Positions 1,431 to 41,179 of a DNA stretch of 41,179 nt are shown here, piece by piece. A program made the translations under genes and the position numbers. The stretch is from a virus. Location of the stretch: IMG/VR virus record IMGVR_UViG_3300025759_000205, positions 1 to 41,179 of that record, one strand, 5' to 3'. Numbering within the stretch: the first letter of the stretch is position 1; every line of letters starts with the position of its first letter. Below the pieces are notes generated by a model. The model was not told the DNA's origin. It worked only from the letters and a program-made list of their open reading frames with translations, and ran no database searches.

Positions 1431-4400
1431 TTACCTCTCTAATGCTCTAGTGTCGAGCTGACTATATACAGGGAAGTAATCAAAAGGTTCTGCTTCTCCC
1501 TGTAGTAAATCATATGCTCTTTCTGCTCCAGGCCCTAGTATAGGAATAAGAGGCCCTTTGCCATATTGTTTATCCTCCATAACAAGCGGTAAAGCCAAAG
1601 CACCAGGACCTAACATACCACTTCTATCTAAAACTTCAAACCAGTATTTACCGCCTGACATATCTCTAGATGCTCTATAATTTACACCAGGGTCATTAGG
1701 ACTTATACCCGGTAGTACGTAAGATAATCCTATTTTAAATCTTTCTCTTAAATCCCAACCAATCATTGTCAAAGGCATCAACAAGGCAGCTCCAAAGAAA
1801 AGTGGCATTATAGCTGGAGTTATATTACCAGTCTCAGCATATCTAGTTTTACCTTCTCTAAATAAACCACCCATAATATTTTTACCATAAGCATAATAGA
1901 AGGATTTTAGCTGCCAAACTATGGCCCAGTGTGGGTCAGATGCCCAAACAGGTCTTTCTGCTGCATTAGGTCTTACAATAGCTTCGTCTACAAACCTACC
2001 CAACGCTGTCCTAACCTCGGCGTGTTGGTCTATATCACTACCACTGTTTTTCCAAGCTTGTATCTGTTCTGATGTTACCCCTAAATCTTTTAAGTACCTT
2101 TCTGATAACAGTACATCTGCGTCGCCTTCATAACCTTTGGAAACTATATCAGCGTGTTTTATTAAGAAATCTCTAGCCATACCTGCAGCAAACTTTCTAG
2201 TAAAGATTGTCCATCTTTCTAACTGTGTAATTCTAAACCATGTGTTAGTAGCTTTTTTAGACCATAAAGATGTTCCATCAAGCTCACCTGCGTATAAGAT
2301 TGTTTGTGCTGCAGCTTCTCTACCATTAGCACCTATGTCCCTTGCAAGTTGTTCTGCTTCGCCTTTACCCAGAGCATCGAATATGTTTTTAGTAATAGTT
2401 CTTAAGTCAAACTCTCTGCTTCTAAGTATTGGACCTGCAGAGTCTGGCACTGAAGCAAATACTGCCATGCCTAAAAGAGTAAGCACATTAAGGGTAAGCA
2501 CCCCATCATTCATATGCCTCCAAGCGGTATGGCGTATAGGATCTACTCTACCTAACATAGCATTGACAGCATCTTTTGCATGTCCTTGTTCTTCTGCAGG
2601 AAGCTGATCTATAAGGTTTCTAATTCTTCTACTACCCCCTCTTTTTTGTAGCTCAACTTGTCTGGTTATATCTCTAAGGTATTCTAATATTGCTACTTCT
2701 CCTGGGGCAGCTAATCCTTCTTCGACGAGCGTAGGAGTATCTAATCCTTCCCATAGACTAGCCCTTTCTTCTGGCATACCTAAGCCATACCCGGAGTCTT
2801 CATCTAACTTGCTGCCGGTGTCTACACTCTTTTCATTGTTTGCAATTATTTTTTCTACAGCTTTTACAACATCTGCGGGTTTACTGGTTGGGTTTGCTTC
2901 TATAAGAAGTTCTATCAGCTTTGCTTTAAGTTCAGGCTTAGCTGCTATATCAGCAATCAATATAATACGAGGGAAATAGTTAGCTCTTCTTTGGATATTA
3001 GTTTTATAAAACTGACCAGTTTCGGGATCACGTTTAAATATTTCATACTTTTCTAATTCTAAAATATCGTAAACATCAAATAAAAACTTACGTACGACTT
3101 GTGCTTTTGGTGATAACTGTTCGGTTGGTTTCTTTTCGTCTTGTGCTTCTCTAAAAGCATCTATTTCTTCCTGAGTAAATGCGCTTTCGTTTATGCCAGT
3201 TACGCCTTGTACTACTGCATCAAAGCCGTCTACTTCTTTTGCATCCATACCAAGTCTTTTTACTAGCTCATTAACTAGCTCGTTTAGCTTTCTATTGGCC
3301 TCATTTATCATACCAGGTGTGCCTTGTTCTCCACTAACCTTGTGGAAGATTTGGCCTATTTCTTTACCTATACCTTTTTCTTTACCTAAAGTATCTAAGA
3401 AACCACGAGCTGTAAAAAATAACTTAGTAAACCATGGTGGTACTTTACCTGTTTTTACCATGTTCATTGCATCTTTGTTTATCTTACGCATAAACTTCAA
3501 GCTTGGTTTATTACCAAATAAACCATCTATAAGCTCTTCAGCATGGACTCTATCTTGAAAATTTAAATCAGTTCTTTCGTTTAAAATGCCATCTATACCT
3601 TTCATAAATTCACCTACGCTCTCATCGTAAGTAAACCTACCTTGAAAGAAAGCCGCATTGCCTTGGTCTAATGCACTTTCAGATGTCGGTGAAAGAGGTG
3701 CAAGTTTTTGTTTTGCATCATAAAAAGCTTTTAAAGCTTGTGCCATTGTATTTATATAGTTATCACTTAAGTCTTTAGATTTAAGTATTGTACCTTTGTC
3801 CAAATCGAATAAAGCAGCTGACACTTTATCTACAAACCATTCTTCAAAACCACCATCTTCAAAGTATTGTCCAACTTCTGGACTTGCAGCTTTAGCTTTT
3901 TCAAACTCTTTCATAAAGTATCTTCTAAGCAAAGGATTTTTTAAAAGTTTATTCATAGATTCTCTAAAGAAACTATGACCCATTTCATGTCCTAATACTA
4001 AATGCATAAGACCAAAGTTAAACTCAGTAAGATTTTCAGGAGTTCTTAAAACTATAATATCGAACTGTCCACCAAAACCTTGCATGTAGCCTGCAACTCC
4101 TTTGCTCTGAACCATGACATCATCTTTTATTTCGTTTAACCTTTGATTAACAGCGTCTACATAACCATCATAGTCACCTTTTGCTTGTTCCATAAGAAGA
4201 CGCCTAACACCTGGTATCGTGTCTGCTGCTCCTTTGATGTTAATAGTTTCTTGTTGAGTAAAAATCAAAAGAGGTTTTTTTAGACCTAAATGTTTTTTAG
4301 CAACTTTACCTACAGTTCTAAAATACCTTTTAATACTTTCTGGAGTTGCATTTGCTAACCTTTCACTTAACTGAATAGGCTCAACAGTTTTTGGTATCTT

Positions 4401-25394: not shown

Positions 25395-26411
25395 ATGCAC
25401 ACAATCAATCCAATCAAGCTCAAAGATGAGCTCAAAGACTGCATCAATGCCGGCTACCCAGCTATGATCTGGGGTGGGCCAGGCATTGGTAAATCTGACA
25501 TACCAGAACAGGTAGCTAAAGATCTAGGCGTCCCGCTTATAGATTTCCGTGCTAACCTGTTCGACCCTGTCGACGTACGTGGTATTCCATATATCAAACA
25601 ACTGAAAGAAACTGGCAAAAGGTTTACATCCTGGGCTATACCAGATGTGTTTCCTATTGCCGAACGTGACGGTGAGCGTGGCTTGCTCTTCATTGACGAG
25701 CTACCAACTGCGCCACCCGCTACACAAAATGCTTTCTTACAGTTGTTGCTCAACAGATCAATCGGCGATTATCACCTGCCTGCTGGCTGGCAAATCATTT
25801 GCGCTGGTAACAGGCTAACTGACGCTGCTGCTGTTTATCAAATGCCATCACCTGTACGTAACAGGCTTGCACATTACGAGCTCGAGCCAACACTCGATGA
25901 CTGGGTGCAATGGGCTTATCAGCACAACATCGACCCAGATGTTATCTCGTTCATACAATACAGGCCAAATCTGTTATCTCAGTTCAATGCTGATGAGTAT
26001 GCATTCCCAACACCACGTGCTTGGGCTATGGTCAGTAAAAAAATGTCAAGAGCTAACTCAGATCCAGAACGTTTGTTCTTTGGTGTGTCATCACTAGTTG
26101 GTGACGGCCCAGCTGGTGAGTTTGTTGCATTCAAAGAAATTGCAAACAAGCTACCAGATATTGATCAGTTGCTCAAAGACCCATCTACGTACAAGAAAGA
26201 CGACAACCCAGCGTTGTTGTACGCTCTTGCTACTGCTGTTGCTACTAGAGCACAGGATGACAAGATGGAAAACATTATGAAGCTAAACAACAAGTTACCA
26301 GTTGAGTTTCAGGTTGTGTTAGTCAAAGGTTGTTTGGCTAAAGACAGACAACTCAAATCACACAACGATGTACGTAAGTGGATCGTTGACAATGCTAATG
26401 TTGTTTTATAG
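25395..26411 (+). CDS. MoxR-type AAA+ ATPase
   Basis: 338 aa. Walker A GGPGIGKS (27-34), Walker B GLLFIDE (96-102), sensor-1 asparagine in CAGNR (N139) and probable arginine fingers in MPSPVRNR (R155, R157). The segment DPVDVRGIPY and the compact lid place it with MoxR-like AAA+ ATPases, which act as hexameric remodelling machines usually paired with VWA-domain proteins. Here the VWA partner lies two genes downstream (27078). AGGAGG lies six bases before the ATG. N4-like phages also carry an AAA/VWA pair, so a virus role is known to exist, but the target is unknown. Confidence 0.85.
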   Translation: MHTINPIKLKDELKDCINAGYPAMIWGGPGIGKSDIPEQVAKDLGVPLIDFRANLFDPVDVRGIPYIKQLKETGKRFTSWAIPDVFPIAERDGERGLLFIDELPTAPPATQNAFLQLLLNRSIGDYHLPAGWQIICAGNRLTDAAAVYQMPSPVRNRLAHYELEPTLDDWVQWAYQHNIDPDVISFIQYRPNLLSQFNADEYAFPTPRAWAMVSKKMSRANSDPERLFFGVSSLVGDGPAGEFVAFKEIANKLPDIDQLLKDPSTYKKDDNPALLYALATAVATRAQDDKMENIMKLNNKLPVEFQVVLVKGCLAKDRQLKSHNDVRKWIVDNANVVL

Positions 26412-26419
26412 GAGGTTAT

Positions 26420-27076
26420 ATGAAAACAGTTAGATTATCTATGCAATTACAAAGCGACATCACTGATGCTGCTCGTAAAAAATTCAAGAATGCTAATCCT
26501 AAAAAAGAGTATCCAGACGATGGGTACTCTGTTATGCAAAGGCTTGGCATAACTGACAAAGTTGAACAAACTAAAAAGTTGTTCAAAGACATTTGGGACA
26601 GGACAATGCCTGCTCAGACTGTTGATTACATTACTCTCAGATCAGAAGCTGTTGAAGCAGATGATGACGGTGAAGGTAATGAATACACAAGAAACTTATC
26701 TTATCAACTTCGTTGTCCACCAACAGAAGTGCCTAAGTTTCTATGTTACTACGACGAGCTAAGGCTCGATGTGCCATGCGATGATCCAACTATTGTTGAA
26801 TGCATGACTATCGAGAACTACAACAAAGACCTTAGTGAAAAAGAAGCTACTCAGATAAGACAACTAAGAGTGGCTATGGGTAATTTTTCTACCTTAAATC
26901 AGTTACTTAAAGCTGCACCGTATGTCAAAGACCTGGTGCCACAAGAAAAACTGACCAAAATGTATGAGAAAGACGATCGTACAGGTAGACGTCAAGAACT
27001 TGCTGAACTAGCAGACGACCAGCTTCAAGGGCTGCGTGAAGTCATACTAGAAGACGCACTATTAGGAGATGATTAA
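26420..27076 (+). CDS. MoxR/VWA-associated protein A, 218 aa
   Basis: 218 aa. It starts VRLSMQLQSDITDAARKKF and ends with KDLVPQEKLTKMYEK and LREVILEDALLGDD. The same beginning (VQMSQTLRDQITENYKQQL) and end (KDLVPDEYMQRMLVK and MNEVILTNKLLGDD) are found in the 278-aa protein at 28767, so the two are diverged relatives with different middles. The protein sits between the MoxR ATPase and the VWA gene, eight nt after the former, with AGGAGG before its ATG. It may be an adaptor or substrate of the complex. No known domain is recognised. Confidence 0.65.
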   Translation: MKTVRLSMQLQSDITDAARKKFKNANPKKEYPDDGYSVMQRLGITDKVEQTKKLFKDIWDRTMPAQTVDYITLRSEAVEADDDGEGNEYTRNLSYQLRCPPTEVPKFLCYYDELRLDVPCDDPTIVECMTIENYNKDLSEKEATQIRQLRVAMGNFSTLNQLLKAAPYVKDLVPQEKLTKMYEKDDRTGRRQELAELADDQLQGLREVILEDALLGDD

Positions 27077-27077
27077 T

Positions 27078-28184
27078 ATGAATCCATTGTTTCAAAAAGC
27101 TAGGTCAAGACTTATTCTTGACAACCCATTCTTCGGTACCTTGTGCCTCAGGCAAAAGCCTACCGAGTGGGACGAGCCAACCGGTGCAGTAGACGGTAAA
27201 CATCTGTTCTACAATGTCAAATGGTTTGAAAAGCTTACAGAAATGGAACGTGTGGGTTTCCTGGCGCACGAAGTTATGCACCTGGTTCTCATGCATCACA
27301 CGCGTAGACAAGAACGCAATGCTCACAAATGGAACATTGCAGCTGACTACGCTATCAACAATCATCTTATAGCCGAAGGTTTTATTCTGCCGAAAGGCGG
27401 TCTGGTGGATGACCAGTACGAAAACATGACTACCGAAGCTATCTACAATATGCTACCTGAACCTCCTCAGGGATGGGACGCAGCATACAAAGATGGTGGG
27501 GGCTGTGGTGGCGTGCTGGATCATCCCGATTCAGATGGTACAAGCGGTACAGCTAGTGCTATCGAATCTGAATTAACTGTTGCTATCAACCAAGCAGCTG
27601 AAGCTGCTAAAGCACAAGGTAAATTATCTGCCAACATGCAATCTTTAGTAACAGACATTACAGATCCAAAAGTCGATTGGAAAGCTGTGTTAGCTCGTTT
27701 CTTACGTGCTAATAACAAATCTGATTTTACATGGTCTCGTCCTAACAGACGATTCATATCCAGAGGTATGTATCTACCTGCTCTCCATAATCCCTGTCTC
27801 GAAGAGATAGCGATTGCTGTAGATACATCTGGTTCTATAACAGATGATGAGCTAGCACAGTTTACTTCCGAGACTTCGTACATATTGCATGAGCTCAACC
27901 CTGAACGAGTGCAGTTTATACAATGTGACTATGATGTGCAAAACGCATGTGAATACACACGTGAATCATTGCCACTTGAAGTCACGTACGAAGGTAGAGG
28001 TGGCACTCGAATTAGTCCAGTAATTGATTACGTTAATGAGCATCATCCTAATGTTGCTGCTCTTGTGTATCTTACTGACCTCGAGGTAGCTGAAGAAGAT
28101 TTTGGAGACAAACCGCACTATCCAGTGTTGTTTGTGTCAACTAGTATGGAGGAAGCACCCTATGGTGAAGTTATCAAAATGTAA
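27078..28184 (+). CDS. Metallopeptidase-like + VWA domain protein (DUF2201 type)
   Basis: 368 aa. The N-terminal half carries a zinc-binding HEVMH (64-68) with NIAADYAIN (86-94), the signature of the putative metallopeptidase domain that precedes VWA-like domains (DUF2201). The C-terminal half has a full MIDAS metal site: DTSGS (249-253), T310 in GRGGTRIS, and D334 in YLTDLE. With the MoxR ATPase it forms the classic chaperone pair. I prefer ATG 27078 because the GGAG is nine bases upstream; ATG 27069 touches the GGAG. Peptidase activity and target are unknown. The next gene starts inside its 3' end. Confidence 0.85.
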   Translation: MNPLFQKARSRLILDNPFFGTLCLRQKPTEWDEPTGAVDGKHLFYNVKWFEKLTEMERVGFLAHEVMHLVLMHHTRRQERNAHKWNIAADYAINNHLIAEGFILPKGGLVDDQYENMTTEAIYNMLPEPPQGWDAAYKDGGGCGGVLDHPDSDGTSGTASAIESELTVAINQAAEAAKAQGKLSANMQSLVTDITDPKVDWKAVLARFLRANNKSDFTWSRPNRRFISRGMYLPALHNPCLEEIAIAVDTSGSITDDELAQFTSETSYILHELNPERVQFIQCDYDVQNACEYTRESLPLEVTYEGRGGTRISPVIDYVNEHHPNVAALVYLTDLEVAEEDFGDKPHYPVLFVSTSMEEAPYGEVIKM

Positions 28185-39711: not shown

Positions 39712-39744
39712 TGCCTTACAGAGCATTCTGTGAGGTCATTTTTT
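39712..39744 (+). terminator. Terminator at the convergent junction
   Basis: CCTTACAGA (39714-39722) pairs with TCTGTGAGG (39727-39735), one G-T, around a GCAT loop, then TCATTTTTT. Ends the rightward replication block and overlaps the stop of the minus-strand HNH gene; it is poor in the leftward direction. Confidence 0.7.
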
Positions 39745-39981
39745 CTGAGATTTGCTATTTCTGGCGAAAGAACGGTTTTTTGATCTATCTTGCAATCTTA
39801 AATTACTTTTTCTATTGTTCATTGGATTTCCATCTATATGATGTATGTCAATACGATCTCCTTTCCGTACTTTACCTTCACGCAATGCTTCACGTCTTAC
39901 TTTATTTCTCATAGCACGACGTTTCTTTTGCTCAGGTGACTTATGATATCTTTCGTATTCTTGTTTATAGTTTCTTGGCAT
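39736..39981 (-). CDS. HNH endonuclease, 81 aa
   Basis: 81 aa. IDIHHIDGNPMNNRKSNLRL (about residues 44-63) is a complete HNH core (HH, then N, then N-L). The N-terminus is very basic (KKRRAMRNKVRREALREGKV), suited to DNA binding. It lacks extra DNA-specificity domains, so it may be a free-standing homing-type or packaging-linked nuclease. The ATG follows the stop of the cyclase gene with no gap (TAGATG), so the two form one transcription unit. The C-terminal end shares bases with the terminator. Confidence 0.8.
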   Translation of the reverse strand: MPRNYKQEYERYHKSPEQKKRRAMRNKVRREALREGKVRKGDRIDIHHIDGNPMNNRKSNLRLQDRSKNRSFARNSKSQKK

Positions 39982-41179
39982 CTATATAGTATACACCTTC
40001 AAAGGTTTTGCTTTACCTTTTACTTTGATGGGAGCTAGTAGTGTCAGATCAAACGGCATCTTCTTAGCAGTAGACTCACCAATTAATATATCTACTCCAG
40101 CTTCTTTCGTTGCACTCTCTAATCGTGCGGCCGTGTTCACAGCATCTCCTATTGCCGAATAATCAAACCTGTTATCCGAGCCCATGTTACCTATAACTGC
40201 CTCACCTGTATTGACACCTATACCTATAGCAATCGGTTCGGGCAATTCTTTTTGCAGCATGCGCATAGCCGTACGCATATCCTGGGCACAGGCGACGGCA
40301 CGTTTCTCATGTTCATCTATATCAAGGGGGGCATTGAAGATGGCCATACATGCGTCGCCTATGAACTTGTCTACCATACCACCATGAGCCTGGATGCATT
40401 CAACTTGTACGGTAAGAGCTTTATTCATTATTTGTGTTACTTCTTCAGGAGATAACTTTTCGGACAGATTCGTGAACCCCCTGACGTCTGTGAACAAGAA
40501 TGTACAGGTACGCTTCTCCCCACCTAGCTTTAATAAGTCAGGGTTGTTTTGCAATCGTGCAACTTGTTTCGGATCTAAGTAGTGTTCAAACTGTTTCTTT
40601 ATCAATTGTCTGAGTTTAAATTGTTCGTTAAAGCGTAAATAGAATTCTTGTACTGATATAAGTATAACTGATAATATACTATAAGTTACGTCTATAAGTA
40701 TATTAGATACAATTAAGTACCAACCACCGACCGCGGTTAACGATACGAGGCCCACGGTCCCTACTAAAGTCCCGACGAGCCCTAACGTACGTATTATAAC
40801 TATGGTTAATGTTAGTACTGTTAGTAATATAAGTAATTCATATAACAAAGCATTGCCTGGAATAGCTGGTACGTCCACAGTCATACTTTCAGCTAGTGCA
40901 GCTTGTATTTCATGTGGGTACAACAAACCAACTGGCGTAGCTATTTGAGGCATCACACCTTTTGCACTCACCCCAATGAATACAAACTTATCCTGTACAT
41001 CCATCTCTTCCAAGCTTGTGCTTGGGGTATCAACCCAGGATACCCAACGACGACCAATGCTATCTACAGGTATTTGTGCATAGTTAGGTACAGTTAGTTC
41101 TTCGATCTGTCCTTGCTGCCCTTTAATAATGTACGTATCTGCACCACCAATCATCTTCATTACTTGTATACCAAAAGAC
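39982..41179 (-). CDS. Class III adenylate cyclase with CHASE2 sensor (5' end missing)
   Basis: The gene is open to the right edge; coding continues upstream of ATG 41160, so the true start is outside. Residue numbers are from that Met. Residues 1-100 are the end of a CHASE2 extracellular sensor (IPVDSIGRRWVSWVD, KFVFIGVSAKGVMPQIATP). Three membrane helices lie at about 104-123, 127-150 and 153-173. A linker (FEHYLDPKQVARLQNNPDLL) leads to a full cyclase domain: metal ligands D225 (FTDVRGFT) and D269, base-selecting K265 (VDKFIGD) with S335 (DYSAIGD), and transition-state N342 and R346 (VNTAAR). K plus Ser/Thr indicates ATP as substrate (class IIIb). It would make cAMP in the host inner membrane. 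Very unusual in a phage. Confidence 0.88.
   Translation of the reverse strand, partial: SFGIQVMKMIGGADTYIIKGQQGQIEELTVPNYAQIPVDSIGRRWVSWVDTPSTSLEEMDVQDKFVFIGVSAKGVMPQIATPVGLLYPHEIQAALAESMTVDVPAIPGNALLYELLILLTVLTLTIVIIRTLGLVGTLVGTVGLVSLTAVGGWYLIVSNILIDVTYSILSVILISVQEFYLRFNEQFKLRQLIKKQFEHYLDPKQVARLQNNPDLLKLGGEKRTCTFLFTDVRGFTNLSEKLSPEEVTQIMNKALTVQVECIQAHGGMVDKFIGDACMAIFNAPLDIDEHEKRAVACAQDMRTAMRMLQKELPEPIAIGIGVNTGEAVIGNMGSDNRFDYSAIGDAVNTAARLESATKEAGVDILIGESTAKKMPFDLTLLAPIKVKGKAKPLKVYTI

What the first reader, a model, noticed from the sequence alone, without database searches (positions are those of the whole stretch)
39982..41179. Membrane-bound CHASE2 adenylate cyclase in a phage genome
All catalytic residues of a class III cyclase are intact (D225, K265, D269, N342, R346), with membrane helices and an extracytoplasmic sensor domain. 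Base use resembles the flanks, and it abuts an HNH gene facing the replication block. It may raise cAMP during infection to reprogramme host catabolite control, or be a defence or superinfection signal. CHASE2 cyclases are known as bacterial sensors; a phage-borne one is rare in my knowledge, but I cannot search.
Basis: partly seen in the sequence, partly recalled or inferred. Interest (0 to 1): 0.88.

Follow-up and report, generated by a model that had tools for sequence, protein, structure and literature searches.

The report
Phage curli-operon adenylate cyclase, cut by contig
A marine bacterial virus carries a membrane sensor enzyme predicted to make cAMP, and it is the last part of a virus-borne curli-secretion gene set that is already known from other ocean viruses and is common rather than rare.

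Summary
In detail: window 39982-41178(-) encodes a class III cyclase with intact metal-binding, lysine, asparagine and arginine residues, behind membrane helices and a CHASE2 sensor. It is a true phage gene. A related contig with a 99-bp terminal repeat (61,031 b) has phage genes on both sides. The cyclase is the last-but-one gene of the late block: terminase...tail, nuclease, holin-like genes, CsgF, CsgG, curlin, FecR, (cytidylyltransferase), cyclase, HNH. The curli/T8SS-FecR-adenylate cyclase module is published for pelagimyophages and HTVC023P-type podoviruses (PMC9599517), and cultured HTVC008M and Melnitz carry it. New here: a third host phage lineage (marine phiA008/KPP25-like), near-universal there (62 of 67 loci), with a clean empty site. 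Sensor and enzyme are both under purifying selection (dN/dS 0.13 and 0.10). No phage cAMP effector was found. Best reading: a FecR-coupled envelope sensor acting late, with the curli pore, on a host cAMP receptor. That function is inferred; no activity has been shown.

The parts
39982..41179 (-). CHASE2 adenylate cyclase, 5'-truncated by the contig end (C-terminal 398 of ~583 aa)
   Evidence: open frame to the end; Pfam; full-length homologue L003:9446-11197, 583 aa
40807..41082 (-). C-terminal part of the CHASE2 extracytoplasmic sensor domain (residues 33-124 of P0001)
   Evidence: PF05226 4.9e-7, profile 150-254 of 257; the full domain in L003 gives 4.6e-30
40588..40851 (-). three transmembrane helices and the helix leading to the catalytic domain (residues about 110-197)
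   Evidence: hydropathy and AlphaFold2 helices 295-317, 319-343, 350-382 of the full-length homologue, mean pLDDT 90.5
39991..40512 (-). class III nucleotide cyclase catalytic domain with D231, K271, D275, S341, N348, R352
   Evidence: PF00211 7.5e-23; conservation; Foldseek matches Cya2, CyaC, CyaB
39736..39981 (-). HNH endonuclease-like gene, last gene of the late block, fixed downstream neighbour of the cyclase
   Evidence: PF13392 3e-6; an HNH homologue in nearly all scanned loci
39713..39736 (+). terminator-like hairpin between the converging replication block and the HNH gene (consensus match only)
   Evidence: 10-bp stem followed by a T run

Best explanation
It is the 3' part of the adenylate cyclase gene that ends a phage type VIII secretion (curli) operon. 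Shown by sequence: N-terminal helix, periplasmic CHASE2 domain, three membrane helices, cytoplasmic class III cyclase with an AC-type active site; a conserved run CsgF, CsgG (lipoprotein pore), curlin, FecR-domain protein, cyclase, placed after nuclease and holin-like genes at the end of the late block. Inferred: late in infection CsgG/CsgF form an outer-membrane pore with curlin as its cargo, the exported FecR protein and CHASE2 work as a sensor pair that reads the state of the pore or envelope (or an outside ligand), and this sets cAMP synthesis in the infected cell. The cAMP must act on a host receptor (CRP-type or other), because none is phage-encoded. The likely benefit is to adjust host envelope or surface physiology around T8SS deployment and lysis.
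For: Operon and domains. Complete genome context and late-block position. Catalytic residues invariant. Purifying selection, CHASE2 dN/dS 0.13 and cyclase 0.10 against 0.46 in the membrane helices. Confident model and fold match to class III cyclases. FecR found in 28 of 80 bacterial CHASE2-cyclase loci, directly upstream on the same strand in 16 by my count of that table, while CsgF/CsgG were never found there. FecR+CHASE2 clusters reported in Campylobacterota (PMC9239204) and a Burkholderia biofilm operon (PMC5192318). In Sinorhizobium, CHASE2 cyclases respond through the outer-membrane barrel NsrA and act through Clr (PMC13001267). Module inserted or lost as a unit: empty site L235. No cNMP-binding, CRP-HTH or GAF protein in the phages.
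Against: No activity, ligand or expression data. The host is unknown, so a cAMP receptor in it is not established. Buchholz et al. saw no clumping in Melnitz infections and proposed a lysis-pore role instead (PMC9004378). The module is dispensable (5 of 67 loci lack it). A FecR-CHASE2 interaction is inferred from gene order only.
Confidence: 0.55

Rival explanations
1. The cyclase acts on its own to flood the host with cAMP and switch its catabolite regulon in favour of the phage, independent of curli.
For: Intact AC-type active site; no phage-encoded effector, so host targets are expected.
Against: End-of-late-block position, consistent linkage to FecR and T8SS genes, and a strongly conserved sensor domain, all of which argue for a regulated, module-linked role. 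CRP-like sites in the window are fewer than chance (12 against 23.8).
Confidence: 0.2
2. Superinfection or anti-competitor system: curli on the surface blocks other phages, and the cyclase senses competing phages or envelope damage.
For: Curli as a superinfection barrier was proposed for pelagiphages (PMC9599517); the predicted topology puts the sensor outside the cytoplasm.
Against: No direct evidence; no clumping was seen with Melnitz (PMC9004378).
Confidence: 0.1
3. Lysis timing: the CsgG pore is a lysis or pinholin device and the cyclase with FecR reports pore opening or envelope stress to time lysis.
For: Module sits directly after nuclease and holin-like genes at the end of the late block; the pore-lysis idea is published for Melnitz (PMC9004378); the same slot holds other secreted cargo in L215 and L243.
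Against: A cAMP-to-lysis link is unknown; the curlin gene is kept wherever CsgG was seen, which a bare pore would not need.
Confidence: 0.12
4. Contig chimera with host DNA.
For: Nearest cellular homologues are bacterial sensors and the gene lies at the contig end.
Against: A 61-kb relative with a 99-bp terminal repeat places it between phage genes; the same linkage recurs in some 80 contigs; bacterial homologues are only about 26-36% identical.
Confidence: 0.01

Closest known systems
Phage T8SS (curli) module with FecR and adenylate cyclase in HTVC023P-type podoviruses and pelagimyophages (Wittmers et al. 2022, PMC9599517)
   Same: CsgF, CsgG, curlin, FecR, (second curlin), adenylate cyclase in that order
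   Different: The window's phage is not HTVC023P-type (2 of 30 proteins shared); one curlin, often a cytidylyltransferase-like gene before the cyclase, an HNH gene after it, and a cyclase clade of its own on a long stem
Pelagibacter phage HTVC008M cyclase (AGE60353.1)
   Same: CHASE2 cyclase ending a curli operon; same K/S/N/R active site
   Different: 34% identity; T4-like myovirus of 147 kb
Methylophilales phage Melnitz cyclase (QZI95054.1)
   Same: Same operon order
   Different: 32% identity; its clade has Ser for the transition-state Asn and Asp at the purine position in 79 of 81 sequences; extra C-terminal stretch
Bacterial FecR + CHASE2-cyclase clusters (Campylobacterota, PMC9239204; Alphaproteobacteria here)
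   Same: FecR gene next to a CHASE2 adenylate cyclase
   Different: No CsgF, CsgG or curlin beside the 80 bacterial cyclases examined
Sinorhizobium CyaD1/CyaD2/CyaK-NsrA-Clr pathway (PMC13001267)
   Same: CHASE2 cyclases fed by an outer-membrane barrel protein
   Different: Has a known CRP-family effector (Clr); none is encoded by the phage

Membership tests
Class III nucleotide cyclase (PF00211) | Profile match over the curated cut-off | tested here: met
   81.5 bits against 21.9
Class III nucleotide cyclase (PF00211) | Two metal Asp, transition-state Asn and Arg | tested here: met
   D231, D275, N348, R352 invariant in the lineage
Class III nucleotide cyclase (PF00211) | ATP-type specificity pair (Lys with Asp/Thr/Ser) | tested here: met
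   K271 and S341; bacterial homologues have Ser 54, Thr 26. Specificity itself is not measured
Class III nucleotide cyclase (PF00211) | cAMP synthesis | not testable with these tools
   needs an enzyme assay
CHASE2 receptor cyclase | N-terminal helix, CHASE2, three helices, output domain | tested here: met
   seen in the full-length homologue L003; the window itself lacks the first ~185 residues
Phage T8SS-FecR-AC module | CsgF, CsgG, curlin and FecR upstream, same strand | tested here: met
   in relatives as far as their upstream sequence reaches; not visible in the window because the contig ends
Phage T8SS-FecR-AC module | Functional secretion of curli fibres | not testable with these tools
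   no expression data
HTVC023P-type pelagiphage | Shared core genome with HTVC023P | tested here: not met
   2 of 30 window proteins matched, against 13 for phiA008 (50 of 65 kb searched) and 8 for KPP25 (50 of 64 kb searched)
cAMP-CRP regulon control by the phage | Phage-encoded cNMP receptor or enriched CRP sites | tested here: not met
   no PF00027, PF13545 or PF01590 match; CRP-like sites below chance. A host receptor remains possible

The most novel reading that the evidence does not exclude
Several distantly related marine phage lineages carry a late-expressed, trans-envelope cAMP sensor, in which FecR and CHASE2 read the state of the phage's own curli pore and, through a host cAMP receptor, time surface change or lysis. 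This would be second-messenger feedback between a virus-built outer-membrane machine and its host.
Probability: 0.12. Interest if true: 0.78.

Novelty: new member of a known kind. Interest (0 to 1): 0.4.

Why it matters
The finding turns a seemingly odd phage cyclase into the end gene of a widespread but functionally untested phage secretion module. It adds a third phage lineage (phiA008/KPP25-like) whose cultured relatives infect Pseudomonas and Aeromonas, places the module at the end of the late/lysis block, and supplies natural module-minus relatives. The question of what phage curli and phage cAMP are for could be tested in tractable laboratory bacteria.

Tried and rejected
Contig chimera: rejected. 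Rarity: rejected. HTVC023P-type phage: rejected. Phage-encoded cAMP receptor: none found. CRP-like sites in the window: below chance. Host from tRNAs: none in the window or in 12 related loci; host not identified. First structure model (18 close relatives) was too poor to use (mean pLDDT 49) and was replaced by one with 65 diverse relatives (pLDDT 90.5). Two scripts failed on file parsing before the genome comparison ran. A literature search joining CHASE2, adenylate cyclase and phage genome found nothing, and no paper from two broader searches described this lineage in what I read.

Full report
What the window is. The window is a whole IMG/VR virus record of 41,179 bases. Pfam finds the cyclase domain (7.5e-23) and the last part of CHASE2 (4.9e-7).

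Extension to the right. Relatives at up to 100% identity continue upstream. In L003 (98% identity) the complete protein has 583 residues, with full CHASE2 (4.6e-30) and cyclase domains. Upstream on the same strand are SNase, two small membrane proteins, CsgF (2.4e-17), CsgG (3.3e-46), a curlin-repeat protein (5.1e-4, just under the cut-off), FecR (5.2e-11) and a cytidylyltransferase-like protein (7.6e-16); an HNH gene follows. The 80 loci fetched with the window cyclase show this order as far as their upstream sequence reaches; the cytidylyltransferase gene is optional. Hydrophobic, signal-peptide-like N termini are present on CsgF, curlin and FecR, and CsgG has a lipobox.

Phage origin and position. 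The L003 contig (61,031 b) has a 99-bp terminal direct repeat, consistent with a complete, circularly permuted genome, and 29 of 30 window proteins tested match it. One strand carries terminase, portal, capsid, tail and fibre genes, then the module, cyclase and HNH; replication genes run against it. The cyclase is therefore last but one in the late block. That it is expressed late is inferred from this position, not measured.

Which phage. The window shares 13 of 30 proteins with Aeromonas phage phiA008 and 8 with Pseudomonas phage KPP25 (about 50 kb of each searched), but 2 with HTVC023P. Among annotated phage records, those with a near full-length CHASE2 cyclase match are HTVC008M and the Melnitz strains only, both with the same operon order. 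The host of the window's lineage is unknown.

How common and how fixed. Around a core helicase gene, 62 of 67 loci with room have the cyclase. L235 is a clean empty site with the holin-like gene about 50 bp from HNH. L215 and L243 carry other genes there, including a 740-748 aa acidic protein and a 373-374 aa Asn/Thr-repeat protein.

Is it a working enzyme. D, K, D, N and R are invariant in 80 of 80 lineage members, with Ser at the purine-specifying position, where bacterial homologues have Ser (54) or Thr (26). dN/dS over 65 full-length genes (1,302 pairs used) is 0.14 overall, 0.10 in the cyclase, 0.13 in CHASE2 and 0.46 in the membrane helices. A 65-sequence AlphaFold2 model (mean pLDDT 90.5) matches class III cyclases Cya2, CyaC and CyaB and, over its whole length, an uncultured phage protein (TM-score 0.94). 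Activity is not shown.

Evolution. Phage cyclases fall on one side of a well-supported branch (SH-aLRT 99) from the 45 sampled bacterial ones, and the window lineage forms its own clade on a long stem (quick tree, midpoint root; the bacterial sample was picked by similarity to the phage protein). In 80 bacterial loci FecR is present in 28 and directly upstream in 16 by my count, while no CsgF, CsgG or curlin was found. The FecR-CHASE2 cyclase pair is thus the shared core, joined to T8SS genes in the phages.

Mechanism. FecR with CHASE2 is a recurring bacterial signalling cluster (PMC9239204, PMC5192318), and Sinorhizobium CHASE2 cyclases are driven through an outer-membrane barrel and act through Clr (PMC13001267). 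By analogy I infer a late envelope sensor coupled to the curli pore. The phages encode no recognisable cAMP receptor and CRP-like sites are not enriched, so the effector, if any, is the host's.

Prior knowledge and verdict. The T8SS-FecR-cyclase module in phages, with alphaproteobacterial origin and cross-family transfer, was described in PMC9599517, and curli pores in Melnitz in PMC9004378. The finding is real but is a new member of a known kind. Its new parts are the third phage lineage, the late-block position, the empty and alternative sites, and the selection and active-site survey.

Noticed in passing
L082 and loci L324-L403 (Melnitz-type cyclases): 79 of 81 Melnitz-type phage cyclases have Ser in place of the transition-state Asn and Asp at the purine position, a uniform altered active site.
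   Followed up: partly
L003:9069-9449 and about 20 other scanned loci: An optional 126-aa cytidylyltransferase-like gene sits between FecR and the cyclase, overlapping the cyclase start in L003.
   Followed up: partly
L235:5775-6415; L215:10237-14780; L243:12046-16544: Clean empty site (L235) and alternative cargo (L215, L243: large acidic secreted protein plus Asn/Thr-repeat protein) in the slot that holds the curli-cyclase module.
   Followed up: partly
L003:5810-6160; L082:2706-2984 and 2997-3344: The small genes before CsgF (92-116 aa, PHROG 18771, weak holin matches) look too short to be histidine kinases, the label PMC9599517 gives to genes in that position; its sequences were not compared.
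   Followed up: no
window 25395-26411 and 27069-28184: An ATPase gene (PHROG 1297) close to a DUF2201 metallopeptidase/VWA gene in the early block, function unknown.
   Followed up: no
record OR851715.1 (Salmonella phage S.Kent 1-2-1, 1499 b): Short unannotated phage record with a CsgG-like frame, possibly host DNA.
   Followed up: no
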